NCBI GenBank assembly: GCA_003052455.1 | Contig: QAPD01000033.1 | Span: forward strand, 22,038 to 86,037 | Direction: 5' to 3' | Origin: Sphaerisporangium cinnabarinum | GTDB lineage: Bacteria; Actinomycetota; Actinomycetes; Actinomycetales; Cellulomonadaceae | DNA length: 64,000 bases | Shown here: positions 34,347 to 49,080 of the stretch, piece by piece | Position numbering within the stretch: the stretch's first letter is position 1 | Layout of the letters: each line of letters opens with the position of its first letter | Position numbers and translations under genes: made by a program | The notes under the pieces: model-generated | What the model saw: only the letters and a program-made list of their open reading frames with translations | What the model was told of the DNA's origin: nothing | The model's database searches: none

Positions 34347-34366
34347 TTTGCTATTTGCTATAGCAA
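34347..34366. promoter_or_regulatory. GntR-regulon operator, site 1
   Basis: TTGCTATAGCAA at 34355-34366 is a perfect 12-bp palindrome, preceded 8 bp to the left by a half-site TTTGCTAT (34347-34354). It is upstream of the Gfo/Idh-importer operon. The same half-plus-full arrangement recurs at 49062-49080. The intergenic stretch 34280-34657 otherwise holds only a large inverted repeat. Confidence 0.8.
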
Positions 34367-34484
34367 GCCTGCCATGCCGATGTTACGCCAGATCGGCGCT
34401 CGTGTTAACTCGCGCACGACGCGATGCGGAGTTGTGACCTTTCGCGTCGCGGCTGCGGCACCGGCGCGGTGGTCGACGTGGGTC

Positions 34485-34585
34485 GGGGCCGGGGGTGGTG
34501 AGTGCGGGTCTACCATCCGCGCGGCTCGTTCCTCGCGGCGCTCCCGCCAGGCCCGCCACGACCCGCACTCACCACCCCCGGCCCC
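34485..34585. repeat. 101-bp element with 26-bp perfect terminal inverted repeats
   Basis: Arm 34485-34510 (contains GGTGGTGAGTGCGGGTC) is exactly complementary to arm 34560-34585, enclosing 49 bp with a CCGCGCGG palindrome. It lies downstream of the first beta-helix gene (minus strand). It could be a terminator or a miniature mobile element, but no target-site duplication is seen at its edges. The TGAGTGC core is shared with the hairpin at 22885. Confidence 0.75.
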
Positions 34586-34657
34586 TTCGTCGTCTCGCCT
34601 CGTGCGGTGCTCACCGCGCCGGGTCGCGCCCGGTGCGGAGAGCGGCACGAGGGCTCG

Positions 34658-36877
34658 TCAGACGACGAGGTTGCCCGTCGTGACGACGCGGTCGCCGTCG
34701 TCGGGGAACGCCGTGCGGGTGACGCCCTGCTCGACGTTGCCGCTGTGCAGGACGTACGAGTCGCCGCCCAGGGCGGACGGTGCGAGCGCCAGGGTCCCGC
34801 CCGCGAAGGTCGAGCCCGTGGCGGACCAGTTGTTGATACCGGCGTCGAGGATCACGTGCCCAGTGTCGCCCGACGGCGCGGTGCTCCGGACGCCGTCGAG
34901 CGCCCAGGTGACCGGCTTGTCCGCCTTCGCCCGGCGCAGGAAGCTCCCGCCCGCGGGCTTGCCCTCGAGCCGCGCGCCGCCGTCGAGCCGGACGGTCTGC
35001 TCGGCCGCGCCCGCCGCGACGACCGCGACGTTGCGCACGACGCCGCCGCGCACCGTGAGGTCGCCGCTCGCCGTCACCGTCCCCTCGCCCTCGGCCGCCT
35101 CGAGCGTGCACGTGTCCAGCACGACGGCGCCCTTCCCGGCGAACGACGCGTTCTTCAGCCCGTCGAGGGTCGTGCGCACGAGGTGCACCGGGTTCGTGAC
35201 GTTCGCCTGGGTGATCGCGGTGTCCGGCAGGACCGCGAAGCGCGACCCCTCGATGACGTTGGGCCGCTTCGACAGCGCCGACGCCTGGGAGATGATCAGG
35301 GTGTCGTCGGCCTGGCAGCCGCGGAGCTGCACGCCGTCGGCGTTGACCCACAGCATCCCCGAGCCCGCGAGGCCGTCCTTGCGGATGACCTGCACGTCCT
35401 CGAGCGTGAGGTCGGTGACCTTGACGCGTGCGACGAACCACGAGCACACGTGCCGCGTCACCGTGATGCGCTTGGCCGCGCCGCCCCAGGCCGCGCCCGA
35501 GTTGGCGAACGTCATGAGACCCGAGTTCCCCACGTACGTGAGGTCGTGCTCGTACTGGCCGTGCGTGACGAACGGGCCCTGATCGTCGCCGTCGCCGTGG
35601 CAGTTCTCCACGAGCCCGTACGACGACGCGGTCCAGTCGTTGAGGTGCCGCGCGTTGGTCGTGTGGCAGTCGACGACGTGCCCGTAGTTGCAGTAGATCT
35701 GCTGCGTCAGGTAGCCCGCGCCGCCCCACGTGACCGACGCCGGGTTGGTCAGCGAGCAGCCCGCCGTGCGGAAGAACGTGCTCCAGCGGCGCATGACGAG
35801 CGGCCAGAACGTCGCGACGCCGTGCACGTTCTCCACGTCGCAGCGCACCGCGTACTCGTAGGCGATCGGGTGCGAGCCGGTGTACTGGTCGCCGTCGGGC
35901 CGGCCGCGGAACGCGAGGTTGCGCACGTGCACCTGCTCGACCGGCTCGACGCGCGTCCACGTGAGCGTGCGGCCCTTCGCGAGCGACCAGCCCGCCTTGT
36001 AGTTGACGCGCACGTGGGTGGCGTCGACGATCTGCGTGATCTGGACGAGGCGCTGGAGCTCGCGCTCCCACCGGCCGGCCAGCGCGTTGACCTCGACCGC
36101 GTACCACTGGCCCACCTCGAACTGCGACGAGTCCGCGACCTCGTAGTCGTCGCGCAGCTCCGGCATCGTCGCCGTCAGGGTGTTCTTCCGGACGTCGTCC
36201 GTGACCTTCCCACGGAAGAACAGCACGGCCGCGAACGGGTCGTCCTGCCCGGCGTCCTCGATGCCCTCGGTCGTCATGAGGTGGTTGCCGAAGTCGAGCT
36301 CGAGGTTCGAGCGCGTGAACGTGTGGCGTCGCGTGAAGTTGAGGTCCGTGTGCGCCTCGACGCGCGTGACGCTCGGGTCGTGCACGAGGGCGTCGAGGGC
36401 GTCGTCGGCGGGGGTGTCGGGCCCGAAGAGGCCGAACCAGCGGAAGTCCGCGGTGCCGGTGTGCAGGGTGTGCCAGCGGCCCTTGGCTCCCGCGTCCTGC
36501 GGGGCGAGGACGGTGCCACCGTTGGCGGCGGCGGTGGACCTCGCGTCGTACCGCAGGAGCCGGGCGGCGCCGTCGCCGGCGGTCGCGTGGCCGAGGAGCT
36601 GGGCGACGGTGCCGTCGTCGAGCTTCTTGGCCTTCCAGCCGGTGAGCTGGGCGACGGTGGTGGCGACGAGGACCTCGTCGTCGGGCTTGTCGTCCTTCTT
36701 CGCCGTGAGCGGTGCGCCGGGGAGGGGCGCCGCGTGGGCGCTGCCGCTGCCGAGCGCGACGGCGCCCGCGGCGAGGGAGGCGATGCCGGCGACGCGCAGC
36801 AGGTTGCGCCGCGAGGGCGCCTGGGCGGCCTCGCCCGGCGCGGCCGTCGTCGGCTCGGTCGTGGTCTCGAGGGTCAT
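34658..36877 (-). CDS. Tat-exported right-handed beta-helix protein A
   Basis: 739 aa. The twin-arginine signal SRRNLLRVAGIASLAAGAVA ends with AHA|AP. About residues 60-150 form a helical/capping region (QLTGWKAKKLDDGT, then TADFRWFGLFGPDTPADDALD). The rest has the repeated short beta-strands of a parallel beta-helix, including ENCHGDGDDQG, THGQYEHDLTYVGNSG and NARHLNDW. The fold is shared by polysaccharide lyases, GH28-type hydrolases and epimerases; the specific activity is not recognised. It follows paralogue B by 83 nt. GAAAGGAC precedes the ATG. Being in the GntR regulon, it probably depolymerises the polymer whose oligomers the importer takes up (inference). Confidence 0.8.
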   Translation of the reverse strand: MTLETTTEPTTAAPGEAAQAPSRRNLLRVAGIASLAAGAVALGSGSAHAAPLPGAPLTAKKDDKPDDEVLVATTVAQLTGWKAKKLDDGTVAQLLGHATAGDGAARLLRYDARSTAAANGGTVLAPQDAGAKGRWHTLHTGTADFRWFGLFGPDTPADDALDALVHDPSVTRVEAHTDLNFTRRHTFTRSNLELDFGNHLMTTEGIEDAGQDDPFAAVLFFRGKVTDDVRKNTLTATMPELRDDYEVADSSQFEVGQWYAVEVNALAGRWERELQRLVQITQIVDATHVRVNYKAGWSLAKGRTLTWTRVEPVEQVHVRNLAFRGRPDGDQYTGSHPIAYEYAVRCDVENVHGVATFWPLVMRRWSTFFRTAGCSLTNPASVTWGGAGYLTQQIYCNYGHVVDCHTTNARHLNDWTASSYGLVENCHGDGDDQGPFVTHGQYEHDLTYVGNSGLMTFANSGAAWGGAAKRITVTRHVCSWFVARVKVTDLTLEDVQVIRKDGLAGSGMLWVNADGVQLRGCQADDTLIISQASALSKRPNVIEGSRFAVLPDTAITQANVTNPVHLVRTTLDGLKNASFAGKGAVVLDTCTLEAAEGEGTVTASGDLTVRGGVVRNVAVVAAGAAEQTVRLDGGARLEGKPAGGSFLRRAKADKPVTWALDGVRSTAPSGDTGHVILDAGINNWSATGSTFAGGTLALAPSALGGDSYVLHSGNVEQGVTRTAFPDDGDRVVTTGNLVV

Positions 36878-36960
36878 GGGGTGTCCTTTCGTCGGCCCGG
36901 CGCGACGGCGCGGGTGTCGGTGGGGAGGGGGATCAGGTGCCCGGGCGTCGCCCGAGCGGG

Positions 36961-39240
36961 TCACACGGTGAGGTTCGCGTCGACGAGCACGCCGTCGCCC
37001 GCGGTCGGCAGGCCCGCGCGGTCGACGCCGGTCTCGACGTTGCGCGCATGGAGGACGCGCACGCCGTCGGGCAGGTCGAGGCGACCGCCCGTGAACCGCG
37101 AGCCGGTCGCGGCGTAGCGGTCGCCGGGGCGCAGCGCGACGTGCGCGGTGCCGTCGGCAGTCCGCAGGTCGGCGCCGCGGAGCGTGACGTCCACGGCGCC
37201 CGCGCCGGTGCCGCGCGAGACGAGGGCCCCGGCCGTCGTCGTGCCCGCGGCCCGGACGCCGTCGAGCACGAGCCGCTGGTCGCGCGCGCCGCTGAGCCGC
37301 ACGCCCACGCCCTGCCACGACCCGCCCGTGACGGTGACGTCCGCCGAGCCGAGGTCGACCGGTGCGGCCGGAGCGTCGTCCGTGCCGCCGACGAGCTCGC
37401 AGTCGGTGAACGTCACGGGGCCGGCGCCGCGCAGGATCGTGCCGTCCACGCCGGTGATGCGGGTGCGCACGAAGTGCACGGGGTTCGTCACCGGCGTCTG
37501 GTGCAGCACCGACCCCGTGGGCAGCGCGAACGAGCAGTCCTCGACGACCGTCGGCCGCCGCGACAGCGACGACCGCTGCCCGACGGCGAAGAAGCCGGCC
37601 GTGCAGCCGCGCACCTGTGCGCCGTCGGCGTTGATCGTGAGCGTCGCCTGCGGGTCGAACGTCGACCGTGCGACGACGTGCACGTCGTCGAGCGTGAGGT
37701 CCGTGATCTTGGTGCCCGCGACGAACCACGAGCACGTGTGGTGCTTGACCGTGATGCGCTTGGCCGCCGTGCCCCACTGGCCGCCCGAGTTGGCGATGTC
37801 CATGAGCCCGCTGTTGCCGACGAACACGAGGTCGTGCTCGTACTGGCCGTGGGTCGTGAAGGGGTTGCCGCCCTGGTCGTCCCCGTCGCCGTGGCAGTTC
37901 TCCACGAGGCAGTACGCCGACGCCGTGAGGTCGTTGAGGTGCCGCGCGTTGTGGCTCGTGCAGTCGGAGACGCGCCCGTACAGGCAGTAGATCTGCTGCG
38001 TGAGGTAGCCGGCGCCGCCGTAGAACACCGTCGGCGGGTTGGCGACCGAGCACCGCTCCGTGACGAAGTGGGTGTTCCAACGCCGCATGATCACCGGCCA
38101 CCACGTGCGGTGGCCGTGCACGTCCGAGACGTCGCAGCGCACCGCGTACTCGAACGCGACGGGGTGGGAGCCGGTCATCTCGCGGTCGTCGGGCAGCTCG
38201 CCGTTCGCCGGGCCGTCGAAGGGCCCGGACCCGTGGAAGGTCATCGCGCGCACGTGCACCTGCTCGACGGGCTCGACACGCGTCCAGGTGAGCACGCGCT
38301 CGGCGGGCAGCTCCCAGCCGTTCTTGTAGTCGACGCGCACGTGGGTGGCGTCGACGATCTGCGTGATCTGGACGAGGCGCTGGAGCTCGCGCTCGTCCCC
38401 GCCGCCGCCCGGGCGCTCGTCCGAGCGCAGCGCCCACCACTGCCCGACGGCGAACGCGCCCGCGTCCGCGACCTCGAAGACGTCCGTGAGGTCGGGGAGC
38501 GTCGCGGCGAGGGTGCGCTGCTGCGTCTCGTCCGTCACGCGGCCCTGGAAGAACAGGACCGCCCCGAACGGGTTGTCGTGGGCGTTGCGCTCGATGCCCT
38601 CCGTCGTGACCGTGTGTCCGCCGAAGTCGAGCTCGAGGTTCGAGCGTGTGTAGGTGTGGCGGCGGGTGAAGTTGAGGTCCGTGCGGGCTTCGATGCGGGT
38701 GATGCTGGGGTCGTTCACGAGGGCGTCGAGGGCGTCGTCGGCGGGGGTGTCGGGGCCGAAGAGTCCGAACCAGCGGAAGTCCGCGGTGCTGGTGTGGAGG
38801 GTGTGCCAGCGGCCGGTGGCACCGGCGTCGGTGGGGGCGAGGACGGTGCCGCCGTTCGGGGTCGCGGTGGACCTCGCGTCGTAGCGGACGAGGCGGGCGG
38901 CGCCGTCGCCCGGCGCCGCGTGGCCGAGGAGCTGGACGACGGCGCCGTCGTCGAGCTTCTTGGCCTTCCAGCCGGTGAGCTGGGCGACGGTGGCGGCGAC
39001 GGGGACCTCGGTGTCGGGCGCGTCGTTCTTGCCCGTGGCGAGCGTTCCGGCGAGGGGTGCCGCGTGCGCGCTGGTGCTGCCGAGCGCGACGGCGCCGGCG
39101 GCGAGGGAGGCGATGCCGGCGACGCGCAGCAGGTGCCGGCGCGAGGGCGACGCCGCCGCCTCGGTGGGCGTGGGCTCGGTCGCGCCGGGGTGGCCGGACG
39201 CGGTGCGGGTGTGGGATCGGGGAGTGGACAACGGGGGCAC
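36961..39240 (-). CDS. Tat-exported right-handed beta-helix protein B (paralogue of A)
   Basis: 759 aa. Twin-arginine signal SRRHLLRVAGIASLAAGAVA, cleavage near AHA|AP. It aligns with protein A throughout: VAQLTGWKAKKLDDG, FRWFGLFGPDTPADDALD, FTRRHTYTRSNLELDFG, GAGYLTQQIYC and ENCHGDGDDQG are all shared, so the pair arose by tandem duplication. The C-terminal third diverges more, suggesting different specificity. The GTG at 39240 has GAAGG abutting it; a TTG at 39231 would be better spaced, so the exact start is open. Two operators lie 180 and 255 bp upstream. Confidence 0.78.
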   Translation of the reverse strand: MPPLSTPRSHTRTASGHPGATEPTPTEAAASPSRRHLLRVAGIASLAAGAVALGSTSAHAAPLAGTLATGKNDAPDTEVPVAATVAQLTGWKAKKLDDGAVVQLLGHAAPGDGAARLVRYDARSTATPNGGTVLAPTDAGATGRWHTLHTSTADFRWFGLFGPDTPADDALDALVNDPSITRIEARTDLNFTRRHTYTRSNLELDFGGHTVTTEGIERNAHDNPFGAVLFFQGRVTDETQQRTLAATLPDLTDVFEVADAGAFAVGQWWALRSDERPGGGGDERELQRLVQITQIVDATHVRVDYKNGWELPAERVLTWTRVEPVEQVHVRAMTFHGSGPFDGPANGELPDDREMTGSHPVAFEYAVRCDVSDVHGHRTWWPVIMRRWNTHFVTERCSVANPPTVFYGGAGYLTQQIYCLYGRVSDCTSHNARHLNDLTASAYCLVENCHGDGDDQGGNPFTTHGQYEHDLVFVGNSGLMDIANSGGQWGTAAKRITVKHHTCSWFVAGTKITDLTLDDVHVVARSTFDPQATLTINADGAQVRGCTAGFFAVGQRSSLSRRPTVVEDCSFALPTGSVLHQTPVTNPVHFVRTRITGVDGTILRGAGPVTFTDCELVGGTDDAPAAPVDLGSADVTVTGGSWQGVGVRLSGARDQRLVLDGVRAAGTTTAGALVSRGTGAGAVDVTLRGADLRTADGTAHVALRPGDRYAATGSRFTGGRLDLPDGVRVLHARNVETGVDRAGLPTAGDGVLVDANLTV

Positions 39241-39420
39241 CCTTCGTGACGTCGGGAGGACGCCGTGCGGGCGAGCGACGCGATGGCTCCGGCGGCCCGG
39301 GGCTGCGGGGTGTTCCGGGGGAGCGGTGCTGCGGGGTCGTGCGGTTCCGGTGCTGGGTAGGGGGTCAGCGGGTTCGTGCGCGTCGTTGCGACGGTGAACC
39401 GGACTCTCGGAGAGTAGCGG
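39241..39420 (-). other. Long 5' region of the beta-helix operon
   Basis: If the -10 TAGCAT inside the operator at 39421-39434 is used, the transcript starts near 39415 and has about 175 nt of untranslated leader. No riboswitch or reading frame is recognised in it. Confidence 0.4.
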
Positions 39421-39434
39421 GATGCTATGGCATC
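39421..39434. promoter_or_regulatory. GntR-regulon operator, site 2
   Basis: GATGCTATGGCATC: palindromic arms GATGC/GCATC and one change (G) in the TGCTATAGCA core. On the minus strand it reads TAGCAT, a -10 match, pointing towards the beta-helix genes. Confidence 0.7.
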
Positions 39435-39493
39435 GTCAAGAGCGAGCGTGCGCGTATCTGTGCAGGTCAGGACCCATCTGGTGCGACGACACA

Positions 39494-39504
39494 TGCCATA
39501 GCAA
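39494..39504. promoter_or_regulatory. GntR-regulon operator, site 3
   Basis: TGCCATAGCAA, one mismatch from the core TGCTATAGCA. It lies 71 bp from site 2, upstream of the same beta-helix promoter, so a repressor could bridge the two. Confidence 0.65.
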
Positions 39505-39537
39505 ACGATTCGTCGCGAGGACGCGCCCGGCGAGCAT

Positions 39538-39630: not shown

Positions 39631-39637
39631 CAGTCGA

Positions 39638-40735
39638 TCAGAGGTAGTCGCCGGGCCAGTGGAAGCCCACCCCGGCCGCGGCGGCGTCGCGGAGGTGCGC
39701 GACGACGTCGGCCGCCGCGCGGACGGGCCGGAGCATCCCGGTCGTGTCGGTCGCGACGACGGGCGCGTCGAGCACCGCGGCGGCGAAGCGGTCGGTCAGG
39801 GCGTGCGCGGGGAGGCGCACCTCGACGCTGGGCGAGCCGTGCAGCTGCGCGCGGTGGAGCGTGGTGCGCGCGAGGGCGTCGACGACGTCGCGCGCGCGGA
39901 CCGACGCCGGGTCGACGCCGAGCTCGCGGACCTTCAGCACGTCCGGCTCGGGCTCCAGGACGACGTAGCCCATGACCTCCCCGTCGGCTGCCCGTGCGGT
40001 GAACACCTCGGCGCCGGAGTACCAGAGCGGGATGCGGTGCTCCCAGTGCTCGACGGTGCGTCGGGTGGCGAGAGGGCGCGGCCCGTCCGCCACGGTGTCG
40101 AACGCGTCGTGCAGCGCGGCGAGCTGCTCCCACCGCAGGGCGACCGACCACGCAGGCCACGGGACGCCGGGCAGGCGGTCGGTGCGGACGGTCAGGGGTG
40201 CGTCGTCCGCCGAGCCCGACGGCGGCGCCCCCGGCCCGGACGGCGCGTCGCCTGGGGTGGGAAGGCGGAACGACTCGGCAGCGAGACCGTTCACCGCGTG
40301 GGTCGCCGCGTCGTCGACCGGACGCGGTGCGCCGCGCAGGAGCGGCACGTCGAACGTCTCGAAGCCGCTCGACCGGTAGACGCCCGGGGTGCCGGTGAAC
40401 AGGAGCGCGAGGTCCGCGCCGTCCTGCTCCATCTGCTCGACGGCCCGCGCGAGCAGCGCACGGACGAGGCCCCGGCCCCGTGCCTCGGGGGCGATCGCGA
40501 CGTTGGCGACGCCGCCGGCCCGCAGCGTGTCGCCGTCCGGCCCGCCGAGCTCGCGCGGCGTCCAGTACACCGAGCCGACCACCCCGCCGTCGAGCGGGTC
40601 GAGAGCGACGTGCGTGCGGTCGAGCCGGCCGTCGTCCGTCTCGTAGACCGGCACCATGAGCGGCGCGTCGAACGCGCGGCCCCACAGGGCGTAGAGCGAG
40701 GGGACGTCGTCGGGTGTGGCGGTGCGCAGGTGCAT
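39638..40735 (-). CDS. GNAT N-acetyltransferase, Eis-like
   Basis: 365 aa. The acetyl-CoA loop is IAPEARGRGLVRALL. The length, with a second GNAT-like half and a C-terminal sterol-carrier-like region (about 280-365), matches Eis-type acetyltransferases, which modify amino groups of varied small molecules. An operator with an embedded -10 TAGCAT lies about 30 bp upstream, placing the gene in the GntR regulon. An amino-sugar or detoxification role in the pathway is speculative. A Pro/Ser/Gly-rich insertion lies around residues 165-185. Confidence 0.82.
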   Translation of the reverse strand: MHLRTATPDDVPSLYALWGRAFDAPLMVPVYETDDGRLDRTHVALDPLDGGVVGSVYWTPRELGGPDGDTLRAGGVANVAIAPEARGRGLVRALLARAVEQMEQDGADLALLFTGTPGVYRSSGFETFDVPLLRGAPRPVDDAATHAVNGLAAESFRLPTPGDAPSGPGAPPSGSADDAPLTVRTDRLPGVPWPAWSVALRWEQLAALHDAFDTVADGPRPLATRRTVEHWEHRIPLWYSGAEVFTARAADGEVMGYVVLEPEPDVLKVRELGVDPASVRARDVVDALARTTLHRAQLHGSPSVEVRLPAHALTDRFAAAVLDAPVVATDTTGMLRPVRAAADVVAHLRDAAAAGVGFHWPGDYL

Positions 40736-40768
40736 CAGGATCCCAGGGTCCGTGCCGGTGTTGACGGG

Positions 40769-40780
40769 ATGCTATAGCAA
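40769..40780. promoter_or_regulatory. GntR-regulon operator, site 4
   Basis: ATGCTATAGCAA with the perfect core TGCTATAGCA at 40770-40779. Read on the minus strand, TAGCAT (40774 to 40769) is a -10 box that would start the GNAT transcript near 40762, leaving a short leader. Confidence 0.8.
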
Positions 40781-40883: not shown

Positions 40884-40905
40884 CTCCTCCTGCGAGAGCG
40901 AGCGG

Positions 40906-41595
40906 TCAGCCGTTCGCCGCGGCGGGCTCGGCCTCGTCGTCCGTGTGGCTCGCGAGGCGCGCGGCGGCCTCGCCGATGTGCTCGGCCATGACGCGCTGGG
41001 CCGTGTCCGGGTCGCCGCCCGCGATGGCGTCGACGATGAGGTCGTGGGTGCGCGCGTGCGCGACGCGCGCCTCGGGTTCGAGCGCGGCGTTCGCGGCGCG
41101 GAGGAAGCCGGTGATGCGGCTGCGGAGCTGGGCGTTGAGCGTCATGAGCATGCGGTGGTCGGCCATCTCCCAGAGCTGCTCGTGGAAGCGCCGGTCGAGC
41201 TCGAACACGCGGGCGTTGCTGCCCTTCTCCGCCGCCTGGACCATCTGCTGGACCGTCTTGCGCAGCTTCGCCTCCTTCGCCGGGTCCCAGGCGTCCTGGA
41301 CCCGCACGACGGCGAACTGCTCCAGCAGGGTGCGCAGGCTCGAGATCTCCTCCAGGTCGCGGCTCGTGAGCGCGGCGACGCGCGCGCCGCGGTGGGGGAG
41401 CCGCTCGACGAGGCCTTCCTGGGTCAGGCGCGTGAGCGCCTCGCGCACCGGGATGTGGCTCGTGCCGAGGCGCTCGGCGAGCTTGCGCTCGACGAGCCGC
41501 TCGCCCGGCGCGAGGTCGCCGCTGAAGATCGCCTCGCGCAGCTCGACCGTGACGCGGTCGGCGACGTTCTGGTCCGGCACGCTCTTGAGCGCCAT
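40906..41595 (-). CDS. GntR-family (FCD/FadR-type) transcriptional regulator
   Basis: 229 aa. N-terminal winged helix VTVELREAIFSGDLAPGERL, then ERKLAERLGTSHIPVREAL, then RLPHRGARVAALT. The C-terminal FCD all-helical ligand domain has the expected metal-site residues (Asp/His in FELDRRFHEQLW, His in ARTHDLIVDAI and in VMAEHIGEA). FCD proteins sense organic or sugar acids. It starts at the ATG at 41595 with GGAGAAACC upstream. The perfect palindrome ATGCTATAGCAT lies between it and the divergent catabolic operon, so it is the best candidate to bind all seven operators and to repress itself. Confidence 0.9.
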   Translation of the reverse strand: MALKSVPDQNVADRVTVELREAIFSGDLAPGERLVERKLAERLGTSHIPVREALTRLTQEGLVERLPHRGARVAALTSRDLEEISSLRTLLEQFAVVRVQDAWDPAKEAKLRKTVQQMVQAAEKGSNARVFELDRRFHEQLWEMADHRMLMTLNAQLRSRITGFLRAANAALEPEARVAHARTHDLIVDAIAGGDPDTAQRVMAEHIGEAAARLASHTDDEAEPAAANG

Positions 41596-41703: not shown

Positions 41704-41715
41704 ATGCTATAGCAT
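41704..41715. promoter_or_regulatory. GntR-regulon operator, site 5 (divergent)
   Basis: ATGCTATAGCAT, a perfect 12-bp palindrome. Because it reads TAGCAT on both strands it can be the -10 box of both divergent promoters (start points near 41697 and 41722), so one bound dimer would block both. Confidence 0.85.
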
Positions 41716-41743: not shown

Positions 41744-43387
41744 ATGGTCGCCCTGCACACGCGGGCCCCCGTCCCCGCGTTCGTCGGCCTGGCCGGCGTC
41801 GCCGTCCGCGACGTCACGCCCGCCCCGGGCATCCGGGCGCGCAACTGGGGCCCGGCGGACTGGGACGTCTCCGAGGGCGCCCACCGCGCGATGACGCTGA
41901 CCGCCGTCGCGCTCGCGGAGGAGCGCCCCGACCGCGGGGCCGCCGCCGAGCCCTTCGTGCTCGTGACGATCGACGGCACGTGGTGGCGCCGGGTCGACGA
42001 CGAGGCGACCTTGCGCACGACCGTGCTCGACGCGACCGGGCTGCCCGTCGAGCGCCTGCTCGTCTCGCTCTCCCACACGCACGCCGGGCCCGTCCTGTGC
42101 TCGGGCGACGCCGACCTCGCCGGCGGCGACCGCGGCGTCGAGTACCTGCACGACCTCGCCCGCGCAGCGGCCGACGCCGCCGTGGAGGCGATCGCTTCCC
42201 TCCGGCCCGCGACCCTCGAGTGGACGACCGGCCGCTGCGGCCTCGCGTCGAACCGCGAGGCGCTGCTCGACGGCTGCGCCGGCGGGGAGGCGGGGACGGC
42301 CGCGGGAGCAGCTGCGGAGAGCACGCCGCCCCGGCCCCTCGTCGGTTTCAACCCTGACGCCGGCACCCCGCGCTCGCCCGGTGCCGACCCCGCGGACGAC
42401 ACGGTCGTCGTCGGGCGGCTCACGGCGCGCCCCGCGGCCGTCGCGGACACCCGGCCCGACGGCGCCGCGCCCGTGGGCGAGCACGTCACCCTCGCGACGA
42501 TCGTCAACTACGCGTGCCACCCGACGACGCTCGCGTGGCAGAACCGGCTCGTCTCGCCCGACTACGTGGGCGCGATGCGCGACCTCGTCGAGCGCGAGAC
42601 GGGCGCCCCCGTCGCGTTCCTCCAGGGGGCGTCGGGCGAGCTCGCCCCGCGCGAGCAGTACACGGGCGACACCGCCGTCGCGGACCGCCACGGCACCTCG
42701 CTCGGCCACGCGGTGCTCGCCGCGCTCGCGGAGCTCCCGCCGCCGGGCACGGAGCTGGAGCTGACCCACGTCGTCGAGTCCGGCGCGCCGCTCGCGGTCT
42801 GGGAGCCCGCGCCGTCGGCTGCGCTCCCTGGCACCGGCACCGGCACAGCCGCCCGGCCCGACGCACGGACGCTCGCCGCCGTGGCGGAGCCCGTCACGCT
42901 CGACCTGCGCGACCTCCCGACGTGGGACGAGCTCGAGGCCGAGTGGGCCGGCATCGACCCGCGCTCGCGCGAGGAGCGTCTGCGCCGCGCGCGGAACCTG
43001 CGCGACGGCTACGTCACCGGCCCGACCGTCCAGCACCCCACGTGGGTGTGGCGCGTCGGCGAGGCGCTGCTCGTCGCGCACCCGGGCGAGGCGTACTCGC
43101 GCCTCCAGCGCACGGTGCGTGCCCACGCCGGGACGCGGCCCGTCGTCGTCGCGAACCTCACCAACGGCCCCGGCTTCGTCTACCTGCCCACGCGCGAGGC
43201 GTACGACGTCGGCGCCTACCAGGCGTGGCAGTCGCCGCTCGCGCCGGGCTCGCTCGAACGGCTGGAGCGGCACGCGTGCGCCGTCGCCGACGACGTGCTC
43301 GCCGGCACCGCCGCCTGGCCCCCCGGCGTCGGCGCGCCACGACCCGCCGCGTCCCCGACCCGTCCCGTCCCCGAGGAGGACCAGTGA
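41744..43387 (+). CDS. Neutral/alkaline ceramidase-like hydrolase (N-terminal domain family)
   Basis: 547 aa. The pattern AGVAVRDVTPAPGI, SLSHTHAGP, NYACHPTTL and AFLQGASGELAP matches the metal-binding N-terminal domain of neutral/alkaline non-lysosomal ceramidases, which hydrolyse an amide bond with a zinc ion. Here there is no signal peptide and the gene leads a sugar-acid operon, so a ceramide substrate is unlikely; many bacterial members in carbohydrate loci are uncharacterised. The ATG at 41744 has GAGGAGGT. Its stop overlaps the next gene (GTGA). The mid-region about 185-215 is an Ala/Gly/Pro-rich insert. Confidence 0.75.
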   Translation: MVALHTRAPVPAFVGLAGVAVRDVTPAPGIRARNWGPADWDVSEGAHRAMTLTAVALAEERPDRGAAAEPFVLVTIDGTWWRRVDDEATLRTTVLDATGLPVERLLVSLSHTHAGPVLCSGDADLAGGDRGVEYLHDLARAAADAAVEAIASLRPATLEWTTGRCGLASNREALLDGCAGGEAGTAAGAAAESTPPRPLVGFNPDAGTPRSPGADPADDTVVVGRLTARPAAVADTRPDGAAPVGEHVTLATIVNYACHPTTLAWQNRLVSPDYVGAMRDLVERETGAPVAFLQGASGELAPREQYTGDTAVADRHGTSLGHAVLAALAELPPPGTELELTHVVESGAPLAVWEPAPSAALPGTGTGTAARPDARTLAAVAEPVTLDLRDLPTWDELEAEWAGIDPRSREERLRRARNLRDGYVTGPTVQHPTWVWRVGEALLVAHPGEAYSRLQRTVRAHAGTRPVVVANLTNGPGFVYLPTREAYDVGAYQAWQSPLAPGSLERLERHACAVADDVLAGTAAWPPGVGAPRPAASPTRPVPEEDQ

Positions 43388-44181
43388 CCACCCCCGCCCT
43401 CGACGCCCCGCGCGTCCCGCTCGCCGTCGTCACCGGGGGAGCGGCCGGCATCGGCCGTGCCGTCGCCGAGCGTCTCGCGACCGACGGGTTCCGGGTCGTG
43501 TGCGCGGACGTCGTGCAGCACGACCTCCCCGCGCTCGACCTCGGCGCCGTCCCCGACGCGCCCGGACTCGTGTGGGCCTCGCTCGACGTCACCGACCACG
43601 CCGCCGTGCGCGCCGCGTTCGACGACCTCGCGGACGCGTTCGGCGGGATCGACGCGCTCGTCAACAACGCGGGCATCCAGCGCCACCGCGCGCTCGAGGA
43701 CCTCACGTGGGACGAGTGGTCGGCCGTCGTGGACGTCAACCTGCACGGCGTCTTCGCGTGCCTCCAGGCCGCGGGCCGCCACATGCTCGCGGCGGGCCGG
43801 GGCGCCGTCGTCAACATCTCGTCCGTCTCGGCCCGCGGCTCCGCGGGACGGGCTCCGTACTCCACGACCAAGGCCGCCGTCATCGGGCTGACTGCGACCG
43901 CGGGCGCCGAGTGGGCCGCGCGCGGCGTGCGGGTCAACGCCGTCGCGCCCGGCTACATCGACACGGGCGTGTTCCGCCAGGGCGTCGCGCAGGGCACGCT
44001 CTCGGAGGAGACGATCCTCGCGCGCATCCCCGCGCGCCGGCTCGCCCAGCCGGAGGAGATCGGGAACGCGGTGAGCTGGCTCGTGTCCGACCAGGCCGCG
44101 TACATGGTCGGCCAGACCGTCTACGTCGACGGCGGGTTCCTCGTCGACTACGGCGTGCCGCTCGCCAAGAAGCCGGAGTGA
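43384..44181 (+). CDS. Short-chain dehydrogenase/reductase (SDR 1)
   Basis: 265 aa classical SDR. Cofactor loop TGGAAGIG, NNAG, catalytic Ser in NISSVSA and YSTTK; C-terminal YVDGGF. Close relatives in oxidative deoxysugar loci are sugar 1-dehydrogenases or 2-keto-3-deoxy-acid 4-dehydrogenases. Which step it performs cannot be told from sequence. The GTG at 43384 overlaps the previous stop codon. Second gene of the four-gene operon. Confidence 0.9.
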   Translation: MTTPALDAPRVPLAVVTGGAAGIGRAVAERLATDGFRVVCADVVQHDLPALDLGAVPDAPGLVWASLDVTDHAAVRAAFDDLADAFGGIDALVNNAGIQRHRALEDLTWDEWSAVVDVNLHGVFACLQAAGRHMLAAGRGAVVNISSVSARGSAGRAPYSTTKAAVIGLTATAGAEWAARGVRVNAVAPGYIDTGVFRQGVAQGTLSEETILARIPARRLAQPEEIGNAVSWLVSDQAAYMVGQTVYVDGGFLVDYGVPLAKKPE

Positions 44182-45488
44182 GCGTGGTGCCCGCCGCGCG
44201 CGTCGTCGCCGTCCGCACCGCGACGACGGTCGTCCCGCTGCCGCAGCCGCTGCGCCTCGGCGCGATGACGGTCGAGCGCCGCGAGTACGTCGGCGTGCGC
44301 GTCGTCGCCGAGACGGACGACGGCCGCACCGTCGCCGGGGAGTCGTACGCGCTCACGCGCGAGGCGCCCATGGCCGAGGTCGTGGACCGGCTCGTCGCCC
44401 CGCACGTGGTGGGCCGCGAAGTCGTGGCGTCCGACGGCGTCGCCGCGCGCCAGAGCGTCGGCGCCGCGTGGGACGCGGCCTTGCGCGGGTCCGCGATCGT
44501 CGGTCGTGTGGGCCTCGTGCGGCGCGCGATCGGCCTGGTCGACGTCGCGCTGTGGGACCTCGCGGGCCGCCTCGCCGGGCGTCCGGTGTGGTCCCTGCTC
44601 GACGACGGCCAGCACCTCGCCGGGTCCGCGGGGCCGGGTGTCGGCGGCGACAGGGACGCTCCGTCGCGTGCTGTCGCCGGGAGCCCTCGCGACGTCTCGT
44701 CCGTGGCCGTCGCGGTGCCACGCCCCGCGATCCTCGTCGCGGCGTACCCGACGCCCGGCCGCACCGCGCGCGACGTCGCGGAGGAGGTGCTCGCGCACGC
44801 GCGCGCCGGGTGGCCGCTGCTGAAGATCTCGCGCTCGCCCGACCGTGCGCTCATGCGCGACCTGCTCGCGATCCTGCGCGCCGAGCTGCCCGACGTCACC
44901 GGCCGTCCGACCGTCGCGGGGCGCAGCGGCGTCGTCGTCGACGTGGGCTTCGGCTGGCGCGACACCGACGAGGCGCTCGCGGACCTCGACGCGTGGGGCG
45001 TCACGGGTGCGGCGGGGGAGAGCGCGCCCGCGCTCGCGTGGCTCGAGGACCCGCTGCTGCCCGAGGACGCGGCCGGCGCGGCGCGCGTCCGCGACGCGTC
45101 CGGGCTGCCGCTCTCCGTGGGCGACGAGGTGACCGACCCCGAGGTCTTCGCCCGGCTCGACGCGCAGGGCGCGCTCGACGTGCCGCGCGTCGACGTCGTC
45201 GCGATCGGCGGCATCACGCCCGCCGACCCGCTCGTGCGCGCGTGGGCCGCGCGGGGGAAGGTCGTGTCCAGCCACGTGTACCCGGAGGTCAGCGTGCACC
45301 TGGGCGGAGCGGCGGGCATCGGCGTCGAGACGTTCGACCGCTCGCCCGCGGGCAACCCCTACGACCCCGCACCGCTGCTCGTGCGCGGCGGTCCCGTGTT
45401 CGACGGCGGCCACGCGACCCCGCCGGACGCGCCCGGCCTGGGCTTCACGCTCGACCCCGACCGCTTCGACCTGGAGGCAGCCCCGTGA
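44178..45488 (+). CDS. Enolase-superfamily enzyme, mandelate racemase subgroup
   Basis: 436 aa. Barrel motifs: PLLKISRSPD (Lys at the MR Lys166 position; the preceding Lys of KxK is replaced by Leu), metal ligands Asp in VVDVGFGW, Glu in LEDPLLPED and Glu in VGDEVTD, and His in SSHVYPEVSVHL (MR His297 position). Members dehydrate sugar acids to 2-keto-3-deoxy acids or epimerise them. The operon context favours an acid-sugar dehydratase. An unusual Gly/Ala/Arg-rich insert of about 35 residues (about 150-185) has no counterpart in the family. Start chosen at the GTG overlapping the SDR stop; GTGs at 44184 and 44187 are alternatives. Confidence 0.82.
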   Translation: MSVVPAARVVAVRTATTVVPLPQPLRLGAMTVERREYVGVRVVAETDDGRTVAGESYALTREAPMAEVVDRLVAPHVVGREVVASDGVAARQSVGAAWDAALRGSAIVGRVGLVRRAIGLVDVALWDLAGRLAGRPVWSLLDDGQHLAGSAGPGVGGDRDAPSRAVAGSPRDVSSVAVAVPRPAILVAAYPTPGRTARDVAEEVLAHARAGWPLLKISRSPDRALMRDLLAILRAELPDVTGRPTVAGRSGVVVDVGFGWRDTDEALADLDAWGVTGAAGESAPALAWLEDPLLPEDAAGAARVRDASGLPLSVGDEVTDPEVFARLDAQGALDVPRVDVVAIGGITPADPLVRAWAARGKVVSSHVYPEVSVHLGGAAGIGVETFDRSPAGNPYDPAPLLVRGGPVFDGGHATPPDAPGLGFTLDPDRFDLEAAP

Positions 45489-46324
45489 CCGGACCGTCGG
45501 CTGGACCCGTGAGCAAGCAGCGCAGCGTCGTCGTCACCGGCAGCGGCAAGGGCATCGGCCGCGCCGTGGCCGCGCGCCTCACCGCCGACGGGTGGACCGT
45601 CGTCGGGCTGGAGCGCACCCCCGGCTCGGGGACGGTCGAGGAGGGGGTGTGCGTCGGCGTCGTGCTGGGGGACTCGCGTGACCGCGAGACCCACCGCGAG
45701 GCCGCGCGGGCCGCGCGCGACCTCGCACCGCTCGCCGGGTGGGTGAACAACGCGGGCATCACCGTCCGCACGCCGCTGCACGCGCTCGCCGACCCGGAGC
45801 GGGCGGCGCAGGTCGAGCAGGACGCGCGCGACGTCGTCGAGATCAACGGCCTCGGCTACCTCTGGGGCTGCGCCGCCGCCGTCGAGGCGTTCACCGACCA
45901 GGTGAGCGGCGGGTCGATCGTCAACATCGGCTCGATCCACGGCCGCGCGGCGTTCGCCGACCACGCCGCCTACGAGCTGACGAAGGGCGGCATCGACGCG
46001 CTCGCGCGCTCCGTCGCCGTGACGTACGGGCGGTACGGCATCCGCGCCAACACCGTCGCCCCGGGCGGGGTGCGCACCCCGCACCTCGACGCGCAGATCG
46101 CGCGCGCCGCCGACCCCGCCGCCGAGGAGCGCGCCCTCGCCGAGGGCCCGCCGCTCGGCCGCATCGCCGAGTCCGCGGAGATCGCCGCCCTCGTCGCGTT
46201 CCTGCTGTCCGACGAGGCGGGCTACGTGTCCGGCCAGTCGATCGCCGCCGACGGCGCCTGGACCGCGTCGTTCGGCAACCCGCCCCACGACCCGGACCTC
46301 GACGCGCGGTACGGCCTCACCTGA
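45485..46324 (+). CDS. Short-chain dehydrogenase/reductase (SDR 2)
   Basis: 279 aa. Cofactor loop TGSGKGIG, VNNAG, Ser in NIGSIHG and AYELTK; C-terminal SIAADGAW. It is distinct from SDR 1, so the two probably catalyse different oxidation steps (for example sugar dehydrogenase and 2-keto-3-deoxy-acid dehydrogenase). The GTG overlaps the previous stop; a GTG at 45509 is an alternative. Last gene of the operon; the lower-GC island begins immediately after it. Confidence 0.9.
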   Translation: MTGPSAGPVSKQRSVVVTGSGKGIGRAVAARLTADGWTVVGLERTPGSGTVEEGVCVGVVLGDSRDRETHREAARAARDLAPLAGWVNNAGITVRTPLHALADPERAAQVEQDARDVVEINGLGYLWGCAAAVEAFTDQVSGGSIVNIGSIHGRAAFADHAAYELTKGGIDALARSVAVTYGRYGIRANTVAPGGVRTPHLDAQIARAADPAAEERALAEGPPLGRIAESAEIAALVAFLLSDEAGYVSGQSIAADGAWTASFGNPPHDPDLDARYGLT

Positions 46325-46361
46325 CCGGCGGGATCACCGACGCACGGCGGACCGTCACCCT

Positions 46362-47456: not shown

Positions 47457-47550
47457 AGTGAGCTCCCCCTGGTCGTGCCGTTGCGAAAGGTTGCGGGGAG
47501 CCTAGTGCGCTGTCTCGGACATGGACAGAGCGAGGCGCTAGCCTCAGCGG

Positions 47551-47724
47551 GTGAATATCGGGAGCCGCGCAGAAGCCTCTGAGGCGGACGACCTGGCCCA
47601 CCTGGCGGAGGCGGCCGACGATCTGGCAGACCTCCGCGCCGCGCAGGCCGCTCGCGACGAGCTGAGCGGCTCGGGGGCTGCGGTGCCCTGGGAACAAGTC
47701 AAGGCTGACCTCGGCCTCGTGTGA
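47551..47724 (+). CDS. Small antitoxin-like protein (RelB/Phd type)
   Basis: 57 aa, start GTG at 47551, ending AAVPWEQVKADLGLV. Acidic helices (EADDLAHLAEAADDLADLRAA) followed by a VPWEQVKADLGL tail resemble the toxin-binding end of RelB/Phd-type antitoxins, which usually continue straight into a RelE toxin gene. Here only a short possible remnant of the toxin follows. It is too short for a full DNA-binding domain and may itself be truncated at the N-terminus. Part of the low-GC island. Confidence 0.5.
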   Translation: MNIGSRAEASEADDLAHLAEAADDLADLRAAQAARDELSGSGAAVPWEQVKADLGLV

Positions 47725-47813
47725 GGCACCGGTTCGGGGTCGCACTCGCCTCGCCTCGGCGGGTGCAGAAGATCGCCTGTCTCGCGGGCCACCGCCGCGG
47801 GGCCTGCCGGTAG
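47721..47813 (+). pseudogene. Possible RelE-type toxin remnant
   Basis: Starting at a GTG that overlaps the antitoxin stop (as a toxin gene would), 30 codons read RHRFGVALASPRRVQKIA and then stop. The VALASPRRVQKIA pattern is reminiscent of the N-terminal strand and helix of RelE toxins, but catalytic residues and two thirds of the protein are missing. Evidence is weak, and it may be non-coding. Confidence 0.3.
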
Positions 47814-47823
47814 GCCGGGGGCG

Positions 47824-48156
47824 TCAGCCCTTGACCATGCTCGCGCGGGTGATGAGACCGTCGCGGACCTCGAACGTCCCGATGGTCTCGCCGGTGCCGT
47901 TCGACGTCGTGACGAGCTCGCGCGCGACGAGCCAGCGGTCGCCGAAGGTCACGGACGCGTCGATGACGCAGTGCAGCGCGGTGTCCTCGAACCGGCTCGC
48001 GTAGAACGCGCGCAGGGCGTCGCGGCCGACGATCGGTTCGGGGGTCACGCCGCTCACGACGGCGTCGGGCGCGTAGGTCGCGCAGAAGCCGTCGAGGTCG
48101 CGGATGTTGAAGGCGTCGACCTGGGCGGTGACGACGGCGGACGGGGACGTGCTCAT
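47824..48156 (-). CDS. SnoaL/NTF2-like (steroid isomerase-like) protein
   Basis: 110 aa. AFNIRDLDGFCATYAPDAVV, GRDALRAFYASRF and GTFEVRDGLITRASMVKG give the NTF2-like pattern of small isomerases or lyases. The ATG at 48156 has CGAGGAGGCACCC upstream. It lies 48 nt after the SDR 3 stop on the same strand and is likely co-transcribed from the operator-controlled promoter, so it may act on an intermediate of the same pathway. Confidence 0.78.
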   Translation of the reverse strand: MSTSPSAVVTAQVDAFNIRDLDGFCATYAPDAVVSGVTPEPIVGRDALRAFYASRFEDTALHCVIDASVTFGDRWLVARELVTTSNGTGETIGTFEVRDGLITRASMVKG

Positions 48157-48204
48157 GGGTGCCTCCTCGGGCAGGGGTGGGCGAGTGTTGCGGCGGACCG
48201 GCGG

Positions 48205-49017
48205 TCAGTCGATCCGGACGCCGCCGTTGACGTCGTACGTCGCGCCCGTGACGAACCCGGCGCGCGGGGAGGCGAGGGACGCGACGACCCAGGCGACGTC
48301 GTCGGGCGTGCCGAAGTCCCCGAGGGGGATGGACGCGGTGAGCCCGGCGCGGGCGTCGGGGGCGAGCTGGTCGGTGATCGCGCTCGTCACGGGGCCGGGC
48401 GTCACGGCGTTCACGCGGATGCCCTCGCTCGCGAGGATGCGCGCGAAGGAGCGCGTGATCGCGAGGATCGCGGCCTTGCTCGCGGCGTAGTGCACGCCGG
48501 TCTTCAGCGCGCCCTGCTCGCCCGCGATGGACGAGAGGTTGACGATCGCGCGGTCGCGCGCGGCCCGCTCGTCCGGCGTGACCGTGGCTCCGGCTGGCGA
48601 CGGACGGCCCGCGCGCAGCAGCGGCAGCGCGGCGCGCGACAGCACGAACGTGCCGCGCGCGTTGGTCTCCATGACCAGGTCCCACTCGTCGAGCTCGATG
48701 TCGTCGAGGGCGCGGTAGGGGCACACGCCGCCGTTGTTGACGAGCACGTCGAGGCGTCCCCACGCGTCGGTCACCTCGGCGACGAGCGCCTCGACGGACG
48801 CGGTGTCGCGCAGGTCGAGGCGCGAGACGCGCGTCGCGGCGCCCTCCGCCTCGCACCGGGCGGCGGTGGCGCGCGCGCCGGCCTCGCCGCCGGTGTACGT
48901 GAGCCAGACGTCGTGCCCGTCGCGCGCGAGCTGGAGGGCGGTGGCGGCGCCGATGCCGGAGCTGGCGCCGGTGACGAGGGCGAGGCGGCGACGGGCGCCG
49001 TCCGGGGCAAGGGTCAT
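48205..49017 (-). CDS. Short-chain dehydrogenase/reductase (SDR 3)
   Basis: 270 aa. TGASSGIG cofactor loop, VNNGGV (Ala to Gly in the NNAG motif), Ser in NLSSIAG, HYAASK and C-terminal YDVNGGVRID. It is related to 3-ketoacyl-reductase-like sugar dehydrogenases. The ATG at 49017 has no Shine-Dalgarno; the minus-strand -10 TAGCGT inside operator site 6 is 6 nt upstream, so the mRNA is probably leaderless. An Ala/Pro/Glu insert follows residue 140. Divergent from the CtBP-like dehydrogenase. Confidence 0.88.
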   Translation of the reverse strand: MTLAPDGARRRLALVTGASSGIGAATALQLARDGHDVWLTYTGGEAGARATAARCEAEGAATRVSRLDLRDTASVEALVAEVTDAWGRLDVLVNNGGVCPYRALDDIELDEWDLVMETNARGTFVLSRAALPLLRAGRPSPAGATVTPDERAARDRAIVNLSSIAGEQGALKTGVHYAASKAAILAITRSFARILASEGIRVNAVTPGPVTSAITDQLAPDARAGLTASIPLGDFGTPDDVAWVVASLASPRAGFVTGATYDVNGGVRID

Positions 49018-49023
49018 GAGCCC

Positions 49024-49035
49024 ACGCTATAGCAT
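49024..49035. promoter_or_regulatory. GntR-regulon operator, site 6
   Basis: ACGCTATAGCAT, one base from the perfect palindrome. On the minus strand ATGCTATAGCGT ends in TAGCGT, a -10 box whose +1 would be the A of the SDR 3 start codon. Confidence 0.8.
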
Positions 49036-49061
49036 CCGACCGGCCCGAGGGTTGGTCGAGG

Positions 49062-49080
49062 GTGCTATTTGCTATAGCAT
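49062..49080. promoter_or_regulatory. GntR-regulon operator, site 7
   Basis: Half-site GTGCTATT followed by TTGCTATAGCAT (49069-49080), the same layout as site 1. TAGCAT (49075-49080) is a -10 box placed 7 nt before the ATG at 49088. Confidence 0.85.

What the first reader, a model, noticed from the sequence alone, without database searches (positions are those of the whole stretch)
34347..49080. Seven TGCTATAGCA palindromes define an undescribed GntR regulon of about 20 catabolic genes
Copies at 34355, 39421, 39494, 40769, 41704, 49024 and 49069 have zero or one change in the 10-bp core. Such AT-rich palindromes should be very rare by chance in DNA of about 73 % G+C. I saw them only in intergenic promoter regions of this one cluster, including the space between the FCD-type GntR gene and its divergent operon. 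Together they connect an importer operon, two exported beta-helix enzymes, a GNAT, a ceramidase-like hydrolase, three SDRs, an enolase-superfamily enzyme, an FAH hydrolase and a CtBP-like dehydrogenase. That the GntR protein binds them is inference.
Basis: partly seen in the sequence, partly recalled or inferred. Interest (0 to 1): 0.88.

Follow-up and report, generated by a model that had tools for sequence, protein, structure and literature searches.

The report
New gene switch for sugar catabolism
In a Cellulosimicrobium genome, eight near-identical copies of the DNA palindrome TGCTATAGCA lie in front of predicted operons of about 20 genes, 19 in one cluster plus a distant serine-breakdown gene, and a GntR-family protein encoded in that cluster likely binds them to keep a predicted sugar-degradation pathway off, through a predicted change in its DNA-reading helix.

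Summary
All seven palindromes exist (0.08 expected in 64 kb), all are intergenic, and the whole 4.39-Mb genome has only one more place within one mismatch. That eighth place lies before sdaA (L-serine dehydratase) and recurs at the same spot in other Cellulosimicrobium and in Oerskovia.

Of 150 genomes of the family, exactly the 15 with this GntR (85% identity or more) carry 4-6 exact copies; the other 135 carry 0 or 1. sdaA carries the site in 13 of 14 GntR carriers that have sdaA and in 0 of 8 congeneric non-carriers. Orthologues of 55-68% identity in other families and orders keep the motif beside gntR (4 of 4; one at 48% does not); 15 distant paralogues have none.

The operator lacks the GT...AC core usual in this subfamily. 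It shares its centre with Atu1419's 10-mer, with the base pair read by Arg45 inverted, and this GntR has His47 there. An exact third half-site occurs in 35 of 110 sites, only at a 2-bp gap. Operators overlap predicted promoters, so repression is likely. Binding, effector and substrate are untested; the enzymes suggest a non-phosphorylative diketo-hydrolase sugar pathway.

The parts
34356..34365 (.). operator, exact TGCTATAGCA; promoter of the GFO-SBP-permease-permease-epimerase-395aa-HDH1 operon
   Evidence: 77 bp before the predicted start; promoter-like TTAACA-17-TAACAT at 34408-34380 minus
34349..34353 (+). third half-site TGCTA, 2-bp gap from the palindrome
39423..39432 (.). operator TGCTATGGCA in the 17-bp spacer of the predicted BH1-BH2 promoter
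39411..39439 (-). predicted core promoter of BH1-BH2: -35 TTGACG (39439-39434), 17 bp, -10 TACTCT (39416-39411)
   Evidence: TTGAC and the TA of the -10 are the same in all 9 aligned genomes; the consensus scan did not list it
39494..39503 (.). second operator TGCCATAGCA, 71 bp further upstream of BH1; seen in the 8 Cellulosimicrobium clusters only
40770..40779 (.). operator, exact; GNAT promoter, directly after a -10-like TACTTT
41705..41714 (.). operator, exact; between gntR and the divergent ceramidase-like operon
49025..49034 (.). operator CGCTATAGCA; 7 nt before the SDR3 start codon (minus strand)
49070..49079 (.). operator, exact; 8 nt before the HDH2 start codon, no Shine-Dalgarno seen by eye (predicted leaderless)
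49063..49067 (+). third half-site TGCTA, 2-bp gap from the palindrome
40906..41595 (-). FCD-type GntR regulator, 229 aa, recognition helix SHIPVREA (His47), likely metal-site residues D134, H138, H184, H206
   Evidence: Pfam GntR and FCD above cut-off
26234..27298 (-). 2-hydroxyacid dehydrogenase HDH1 (last gene of importer operon)
27295..28482 (-). 395-aa protein, no family; weak match to N-acetylneuraminate lyase/DapA
28482..29540 (-). NAD-dependent epimerase-like
29549..30469 (-). ABC permease B
30466..31419 (-). ABC permease A
31493..32767 (-). solute-binding protein
32870..34279 (-). Gfo/Idh/MocA oxidoreductase (first gene of importer operon)
34658..36877 (-).
36961..39231 (-). BH1, similar to BH2 at its N-terminus (by eye); predicted exported
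39638..40735 (-). GNAT acetyltransferase
41744..43387 (+). ceramidase-like hydrolase
   Evidence: Pfam below cut-off; profile hits neutral ceramidase 2zws, E 3.3e-6
43384..44181 (+). SDR1
44184..45488 (+). enolase-superfamily (mandelate racemase type) enzyme
45509..46324 (+). SDR2
47824..48156 (-). SnoaL-like protein
48205..49017 (-). SDR3
49088..50092 (+). D-isomer 2-hydroxyacid dehydrogenase HDH2
50131..50985 (+). FAH-family hydrolase, nearest solved relative L-2,4-diketo-3-deoxyrhamnonate hydrolase

Best explanation
The seven TGCTATAGCA palindromes, with an eighth before the unlinked gene sdaA, are likely the operators of the FCD-type GntR protein encoded at 40906-41595, which is predicted to repress about 20 genes by occupying their promoters until a pathway intermediate, probably a sugar acid, would release it. 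Shown by sequence: the sites, their near-absence elsewhere in the genome at one mismatch, their conservation at the same promoters, their co-occurrence with this GntR, and the third half-site at a fixed 2-bp gap. Inferred: a GntR dimer binds the 10-bp palindrome, and a second dimer may use the third half-site where it exists (GFO and HDH2 promoters). His47 stands where Atu1419 has Arg45, and the operator has C3:G8 where Atu1419's operator has the G3:C8 read by that arginine, so an Arg-to-His change likely goes with the inverted base pair. Repression is inferred because operators lie inside a predicted -35/-10 spacer (BH1), directly after a -10-like element (GNAT) or 7-8 nt before start codons without a visible Shine-Dalgarno (SDR3, HDH2). 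The enzymes suggest import and non-phosphorylative oxidation of a sugar to a 2,4-diketo-3-deoxy acid that the FAH hydrolase would split into pyruvate and a hydroxy acid. SdaA would then turn serine, derived from the substrate or from hydroxypyruvate, into pyruvate.
For: Rarity: 7 sites vs 0.08 expected; 7 of 8 genome-wide places lie in the cluster. Co-occurrence: 15 of 15 GntR carriers have 4-6 exact sites, 135 of 135 others have 0-1. Syntenic conservation in three genera: cores 59/60, 59/60 and 60/60 identical against 119, 132 and 163 of 348 flank bases (sites were picked with at most one mismatch, which favours the core); alignments. Unlinked sdaA: site in 13 of 14 carriers with sdaA and in MAG G146, 0 of 8 congeneric non-carriers (Fisher 2.8e-5, not corrected for kinship). 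G098/G106 and G085 are nested among carriers on the sdaA tree and lack both GntR and site, most simply by loss. Orthologues at 55-68% identity: sites beside gntR in G390, G350, G1089 and L136 (4 of 4); in G390 and G350 all genome-wide places (3 of 3, 4 of 4) are in the cluster. Control: 0 of 15 distant FCD-GntR loci have a site within 1.5 kb, 18 of 19 orthologue loci do. Third half-site: 35 of 110 sites at a 2-bp gap, 0 at gaps 0-1 and 3-14 (many rows are close kin). Recognition helix: SHIP[VI]REA in 119 of 120 listed homologues, no His there in 15 paralogues, aligned with Atu1419; Arg45-G3 contact from passages of PMC7797058.
Against: No binding or expression data. Cluster and GntR travel together (the same 6 of 396 genomes), so in-cluster co-occurrence is confounded; only sdaA and the rearranged loci break this, and on the sdaA tree there are just 3 well-supported independent contrasts (sign test p 0.25). 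G078 has the GntR and sdaA but no site at sdaA; G714 (48% identity) has no site within 1.5 kb of gntR and only 1 of its 4 places in the cluster, although it has the SHIPVREA helix. The neighbouring SMP30 lactonase gene has no site. The consensus promoter scan lists only the GFO promoter and none at BH1, GNAT, gntR, ceramidase-like, SDR3 or HDH2; the BH1 promoter rests on my reading of the alignment, and its -10 matches TATAAT at 3 of 6. The pathway and sdaA's role are inference; no NCBIfam equivalog cut-off was met by the GntR, the FAH hydrolase or the enolase-like enzyme.
Confidence: 0.85

Rival explanations
1. The GntR protein binds these palindromes but activates the operons with its effector bound, as the FCD regulator CitO does with citrate.
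For: CitO is an FCD-family activator according to its abstract (PMC4746285, abstract start in listing). Most operons have poor matches to the promoter consensus.
Against: Operators lie inside the predicted BH1 spacer, directly after the GNAT -10-like element and 7-8 nt before start codons, which are blocking positions. Atu1419 represses from comparable positions (PMC7797058, passages).
Confidence: 0.08
2. The palindromes are the site of another regulator, or a shared promoter element of one sigma factor, and merely travel with gntR.
For: TATAGCAT resembles a -10 element in the HDH2 promoter (by eye). Cluster and GntR are inherited together.
Against: At BH1 and GFO other sequences look like the -10. 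In L136 and G1089 the motif sits right before gntR among other genes. The sdaA site is missing where GntR is missing. In G390 and G350 the importer operon, next to a different regulator-like gene (by eye), has no site.
Confidence: 0.05
3. The sdaA site is an inherited sequence similarity at that promoter without regulatory meaning.
For: Position and spacing to the start codon are the same in both genera, compatible with one ancestral site. Few independent contrasts. Carrier G078 lacks it.
Against: Flanks diverge while the palindrome stays; the Oerskovia copies are perfect; 0 of 8 congeneric non-carriers keep it.
Confidence: 0.12
4. Chance or base composition: the palindromes mean nothing.
For: None found.
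Confidence: 0.01

Closest known systems
Atu1419 of Agrobacterium fabrum (FCD/VanR-type GntR repressor, PMC7797058; passages read)
   Same: Same domain pair; three copies of one 10-mer palindrome (ATGTATACAT) that overlap the -10 or lie between -10 and -35; central TATA; zinc site (Asn and three His there, D134/H138/H184/H206 here by alignment).
   Different: Arg45 reads G3 there; here His47 and C3 (TGCTATAGCA). Different genes (hydroxycinnamate there). Tetramer and looping shown there, untested here. A third half-site at a fixed gap here.
FadR-subfamily GntR operators as surveyed by Suvorova et al. 2015 (PMC4494728; passages and sections 10 and 17 read)
   Same: Short A/T-rich palindromes, extra weaker half-sites 7-12 nt from the site centre (here 9.5), sites in divergons.
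   Different: Their consensus is TKGT/ACMA with GT...AC; here the core is GCTATAGC without GT/AC. BioR and NanR are their examples of FadR-subfamily exceptions, with other motifs.
DgoR of E. coli (D-galactonate repressor, PMC7674646 abstract start in listing)
   Same: FadR-family GntR with a divalent metal in a sugar-acid pocket, acting at inverted repeats that overlap the promoter of a sugar-acid operon.
   Different: Different operator and genes; ligand unknown here.
Non-phosphorylative diketo-hydrolase pathways for L-rhamnose and L-fucose (PMC11199699 abstract start in listing; further steps recalled)
   Same: SDR, enolase-superfamily, SDR, FAH hydrolase and SMP30-type lactonase side by side; FAH nearest to L-2,4-diketo-3-deoxyrhamnonate hydrolase 8gsr, E 1.1e-61.
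   Different: No equivalog cut-off met (FAH 267 against 500 bits); extra ceramidase-like, SnoaL, 2-hydroxyacid dehydrogenase and predicted exported proteins; substrate unknown.

Membership tests
GntR superfamily, FCD (FadR/VanR) type | N-terminal GntR winged helix and C-terminal FCD domain | tested here: met
   PF00392 67.0 bits (cut-off 27.0), PF07729 78.6 bits (24.3)
GntR superfamily, FCD (FadR/VanR) type | metal-site residues (Asp/Asn and three His) in the FCD domain | tested here: met
   D134, H138, H184, H206 invariant in 4 orthologues and in the matching regions of Atu1419; metal binding itself not testable
GntR superfamily, FCD (FadR/VanR) type | binds operators near its own gene | not testable with these tools
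   needs gel shift; sequence evidence
Canonical GT/AC operator group of the FadR subfamily | operator with TKGT...ACMA boxes | tested here: not met
   consensus WTGCTATAGCAW, no GT/AC in the core; consensus from PMC4494728
Canonical GT/AC operator group of the FadR subfamily | Arg in the recognition helix at the Atu1419 Arg45 position | tested here: not met
   His47; SHIP[VI]REA in 119 of 120 listed homologues
Named GntR regulators of NCBIfam (PhnR, NanR, LldR, GlcC, UxuR, ExuR etc.) | curated cut-off of the model reached | tested here: not met
   21 models matched, none at its cut-off; best TIGR03338 111.5 against 271.5 bits
Diketo-hydrolase sugar pathway | SDR, dehydratase, SDR and FAH hydrolase genes together, with a lactonase | tested here: met
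   order conserved
Diketo-hydrolase sugar pathway | certified 2,4-didehydro-3-deoxy-L-rhamnonate hydrolase | tested here: not met
   NF053535 267.1 against 500 bits
Diketo-hydrolase sugar pathway | substrate turnover | not testable with these tools
   needs enzyme assays

The most novel reading that the evidence does not exclude
A clade of FCD-GntR repressors with the recognition helix SHIP(V/I)REA has switched operator specificity by an Arg-to-His change paired with an inverted base pair (xxGTATACxx to xxCTATAGxx). It reads arrays of half-sites with a 7-bp period (two, three, and four in a Propionibacteriales MAG) with stacked dimers, and couples a new sugar-oxidation pathway to L-serine deamination at an unlinked locus, with the sdaA operator lost where the regulator is lost.
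Probability: 0.4. Interest if true: 0.68.

Novelty: new variant of a known kind. Interest (0 to 1): 0.52.

Why it matters
It is an unusually clean predicted regulon: nearly no background sites in a 4.4-Mb high-GC genome, relatives that lack both the regulator and the remote operator, and a defined clade of homologues. It offers a ready test of a specificity switch in a large bacterial regulator family (one residue, one base pair). Its sdaA link and gene content also give a handle on an unassigned sugar-oxidation pathway found in at least two actinobacterial families.

Tried and rejected
Structure prediction of BH2 and the ceramidase-like protein was not available, so the beta-helix reading of BH1/BH2 and the active sites were not tested. 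Sequence searches of BH2 against solved structures gave nothing significant (best E 0.029; best E 0.08, a capsule depolymerase). The 'peptidase C14' names that sources give to BH2's relatives find no support in my Pfam scans, and I do not adopt them.

The palindrome as a -10 element in general: set aside, since at BH1 and GFO other sequences look like -35/-10 pairs; the consensus scan lists only the GFO one. An intrinsic-terminator-like hit at 40801-40787 and one at 34335-34353 were not pursued. Places with two mismatches in the window are few and inside genes. Remote one-mismatch places in relatives other than sdaA: four of them (G124:C12, G124:C13, G078:C9, G043:C32) were looked at and taken as background; the rest were not fetched.

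Papers: searches showed no description of this motif or regulon in their listings, which for 45, 67, 69, 89 and 105 show only the best 8-12 of many papers; one search lists all 19 papers that contain the ten letters, whose titles and abstract starts concern other subjects (texts not read). PMC12288454 was searched for operator terms only (hits in its reference list). This covers only the open-licence library; regulon databases such as RegPrecise were not searched.


Full report
OBSERVATION. Seven matches to TGCTATAGCA with at most one mismatch are in the window at 34356, 39423, 39494, 40770, 41705, 49025 and 49070; dinucleotide shuffles give 0.08 on average. The window has 74% G+C, with 7.9% non-coding DNA between 26234 and 50985; all seven sites are non-coding by my gene calls. 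Allowing two mismatches adds five places, all inside genes (12 in all, 2.0 expected, sd 1.6). In the whole genome (4,387,525 bases, 134 contigs) there are eight places within one mismatch, seven of them here. The tool's control there, the pattern read backwards, has 87 places and is no matched control.

THE EIGHTH SITE. It lies at G000:C35:23091 (TGCTATAGCG), 33 nt before the first of two possible start codons of sdaA, L-serine ammonia-lyase (TIGR00720, 585 bits, cut-off 345), with tag (DNA-3-methyladenine glycosylase I) on its other side. The same position before sdaA carries the palindrome in six further Cellulosimicrobium carriers and MAG G146 with one mismatch, and in six Oerskovia genomes, where it is perfect. 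The sdaA promoters of eight congeneric genomes without this GntR, and of G003, lack it; G019 has sdaA but its start was not recognised by my pattern and was not aligned; G007 has no match to sdaA. Carrier G078 (C. terreum) has sdaA without the site, and carrier G072 (Isoptericola) lacks sdaA. On a tree of 23 sdaA genes (a gene tree), GntR and site each need four changes; G098/G106 and G085 are nested among carriers and lack both. Only three independent contrasts are well supported: on average 2.8 go the same way, 0 the other way and 0.2 do not differ (sign test p 0.25), so this is good but not statistically decisive on its own.

CO-OCCURRENCE. In 150 genomes drawn from the family, 25 have at least one exact palindrome. 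GntR orthologues of 85% identity or more occur in 15, the same 15 that have 4-6 exact copies. Ten others have one copy (one of them, G146, is a 75%-complete assembly that holds part of the cluster) and 125 have none. With one mismatch allowed, the 15 carriers have 6-10 places, and 15 of the 135 non-carriers, chosen by me from the same genera, 0-5 (G146 is among them with 3). The genera are Cellulosimicrobium, Isoptericola and Oerskovia. Caveat: the ceramidase-like gene and this GntR come and go together (the same 6 of 396 genomes of the order). Close homologues are rare: 6 of 396 (order) and 2 of 396 (phylum) at 1e-35, 4 of 394 (class) at 1e-40.

FOOTPRINTS. Sites occupy the same positions in all 15 clusters as far as the contigs reach: before GFO, BH1 (two sites in the eight Cellulosimicrobium, one elsewhere; BH2 in G072, where no BH1 was called), GNAT, between gntR and the ceramidase-like operon, and two between SDR3 and HDH2. 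In G023 and G095 parts of the cluster lie on other contigs (loci L093 and L097). In ungapped comparisons anchored on the site, 59, 59 and 60 of 60 core bases are identical between genera, against 119, 132 and 163 of 348 flank bases; the core figure is favoured by the way sites were picked. Over 102 cluster and 13 sdaA sites the consensus extends to WTGCTATAGCAW. Nine of the 15 genomes, chosen for diversity, were aligned per promoter. They show TTGAC, 17 bp, TA with the operator in the spacer at BH1; a TA at -10-like position directly before the operator at GNAT; TTAACA-17-TAACAT just upstream of the operator at GFO in the Cellulosimicrobium rows and G072 but changed in Oerskovia; and start codons 7-9 nt after the palindrome, without a Shine-Dalgarno that I can see, at SDR3 and HDH2. 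The consensus scanner lists only the GFO promoter; the BH1 -10 (TACTCT) misses its threshold.

THIRD HALF-SITE. GFO and HDH2 operators have an extra TGCTA two bases before the palindrome (34349, 49063). In 110 sites of 22 sequences, an exact extra half-site occurs 35 times at a 2-bp gap and never at gaps 0-1 or 3-14; many of these rows are close relatives. The Propionibacteriales MAG has it on both sides (L136). Extra half-sites 7-12 nt from the centre were reported for this regulator family before (PMC4494728, section 17), so the phenomenon is known in kind.

BEYOND THE FAMILY. GntR orthologues with 60% (G390), 56-57% (G350), 55% (G1089) and 68% (L136) identity all have sites with at most one mismatch next to gntR. 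Shuffles of those stretches reach at least one site in 5, 0 and 1 of 2000 for L136, L139 and L140 (the L140 stretch included 131 bases of gntR; not run for G1089). In G390 and G350 (probably Microbacterium: the contig length of G390 equals that of Microbacterium sp. 1.5R) the cluster is rearranged, and all genome-wide places, 3 of 3 and 4 of 4, stay at gntR, ceramidase-like or BH1, and SDR3/HDH2 promoters. In L136 the neighbour is, by eye, a peptide-type solute-binding protein instead. G714 (48%) is an exception: no site within 1.5 kb of gntR, and 1 of 4 places in the cluster, about 9 kb away, between a TTGACA and a TTTACT. Fifteen distant FCD-GntR loci (32-41% identity) have no site within 1.5 kb.

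WHY THIS SEQUENCE. Atu1419 binds ATGTATACAT; Arg45 contacts the essential G3 (PMC7797058, passages). Phmmer aligns His47 of this GntR with that Arg. TGCTATAGCA keeps the central TATA and turns G3:C8 into C3:G8. SHIP(V/I)REA is in 119 of the 120 homologues listed (of 359 found; one had no match to my pattern), and in G714; the 15 paralogues have Arg (13) or Val (2) there. This is a correlation, and the mechanism is my inference.

WHAT IS REGULATED. Seven predicted units, 19 genes, plus sdaA: GFO-SBP-permA-permB-Epim-395aa-HDH1, BH1-BH2, GNAT, gntR, Ceram-SDR1-Enol-SDR2, SDR3-SnoaL, and HDH2-FAH (operon limits inferred from spacing). SDR, mandelate-racemase-type enolase (with the end SSHVYPEVSVHL, which resembles mandelate racemase as I recall it), SDR and an FAH hydrolase nearest to L-2,4-diketo-3-deoxyrhamnonate hydrolase, with an SMP30 lactonase next door, are the parts of a non-phosphorylative diketo-hydrolase pathway (steps partly recalled). 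FAH, enolase-like enzyme and GntR miss every NCBIfam cut-off, so the sugar is open. If the hydroxy acid released were glycerate, HDH2 could make hydroxypyruvate and a transaminase serine, which SdaA would deaminate to pyruvate. A serine-bearing substrate would do as well. Both are conjecture.

VERDICT. Observation confirmed, interpretation supported and extended. A GntR regulon is a known kind of thing; the non-canonical operator with the His47 helix, the fixed third half-site and the unlinked sdaA operator make it a new variant.

Noticed in passing
46325-47823: The SDR2-SnoaL spacer is an insertion spot: a 364-aa gene with a type I/IIG restriction-like domain here and in G129, four other genes in G078, several in most Oerskovia, no called gene in G124, G112 or G072.
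   Followed up: partly
L136:2386-2409: In a Propionibacteriales MAG a 68%-identical GntR has four half-sites with a 7-bp period (TGCTATTCGCTATAGCATGTAGCA) between gntR and a divergent gene that looks by eye like a peptide-type solute-binding protein.
   Followed up: partly
34658-39231: BH1/BH2 carry twin-arginine-like signals (by eye); BH2's relatives are widespread in actinobacteria, often named 'peptidase C14' by sources and tagged PF27114 in precomputed domains, though my Pfam scans give no such family.
   Followed up: partly
51001-51873: SMP30-type lactonase gene kept beside FAH in the clusters but without an operator of its own.
   Followed up: partly
27295-28482: Conserved 395-aa protein of the importer operon without any Pfam or NCBIfam family; only a weak match to N-acetylneuraminate lyase/DapA.
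   Followed up: no
L142/L143 (G390), L144/L145 (G350): In two Microbacterium-like genomes the importer operon has no palindrome and lies next to a different regulator-like gene (by eye), so part of the regulon seems rewired.
   Followed up: no
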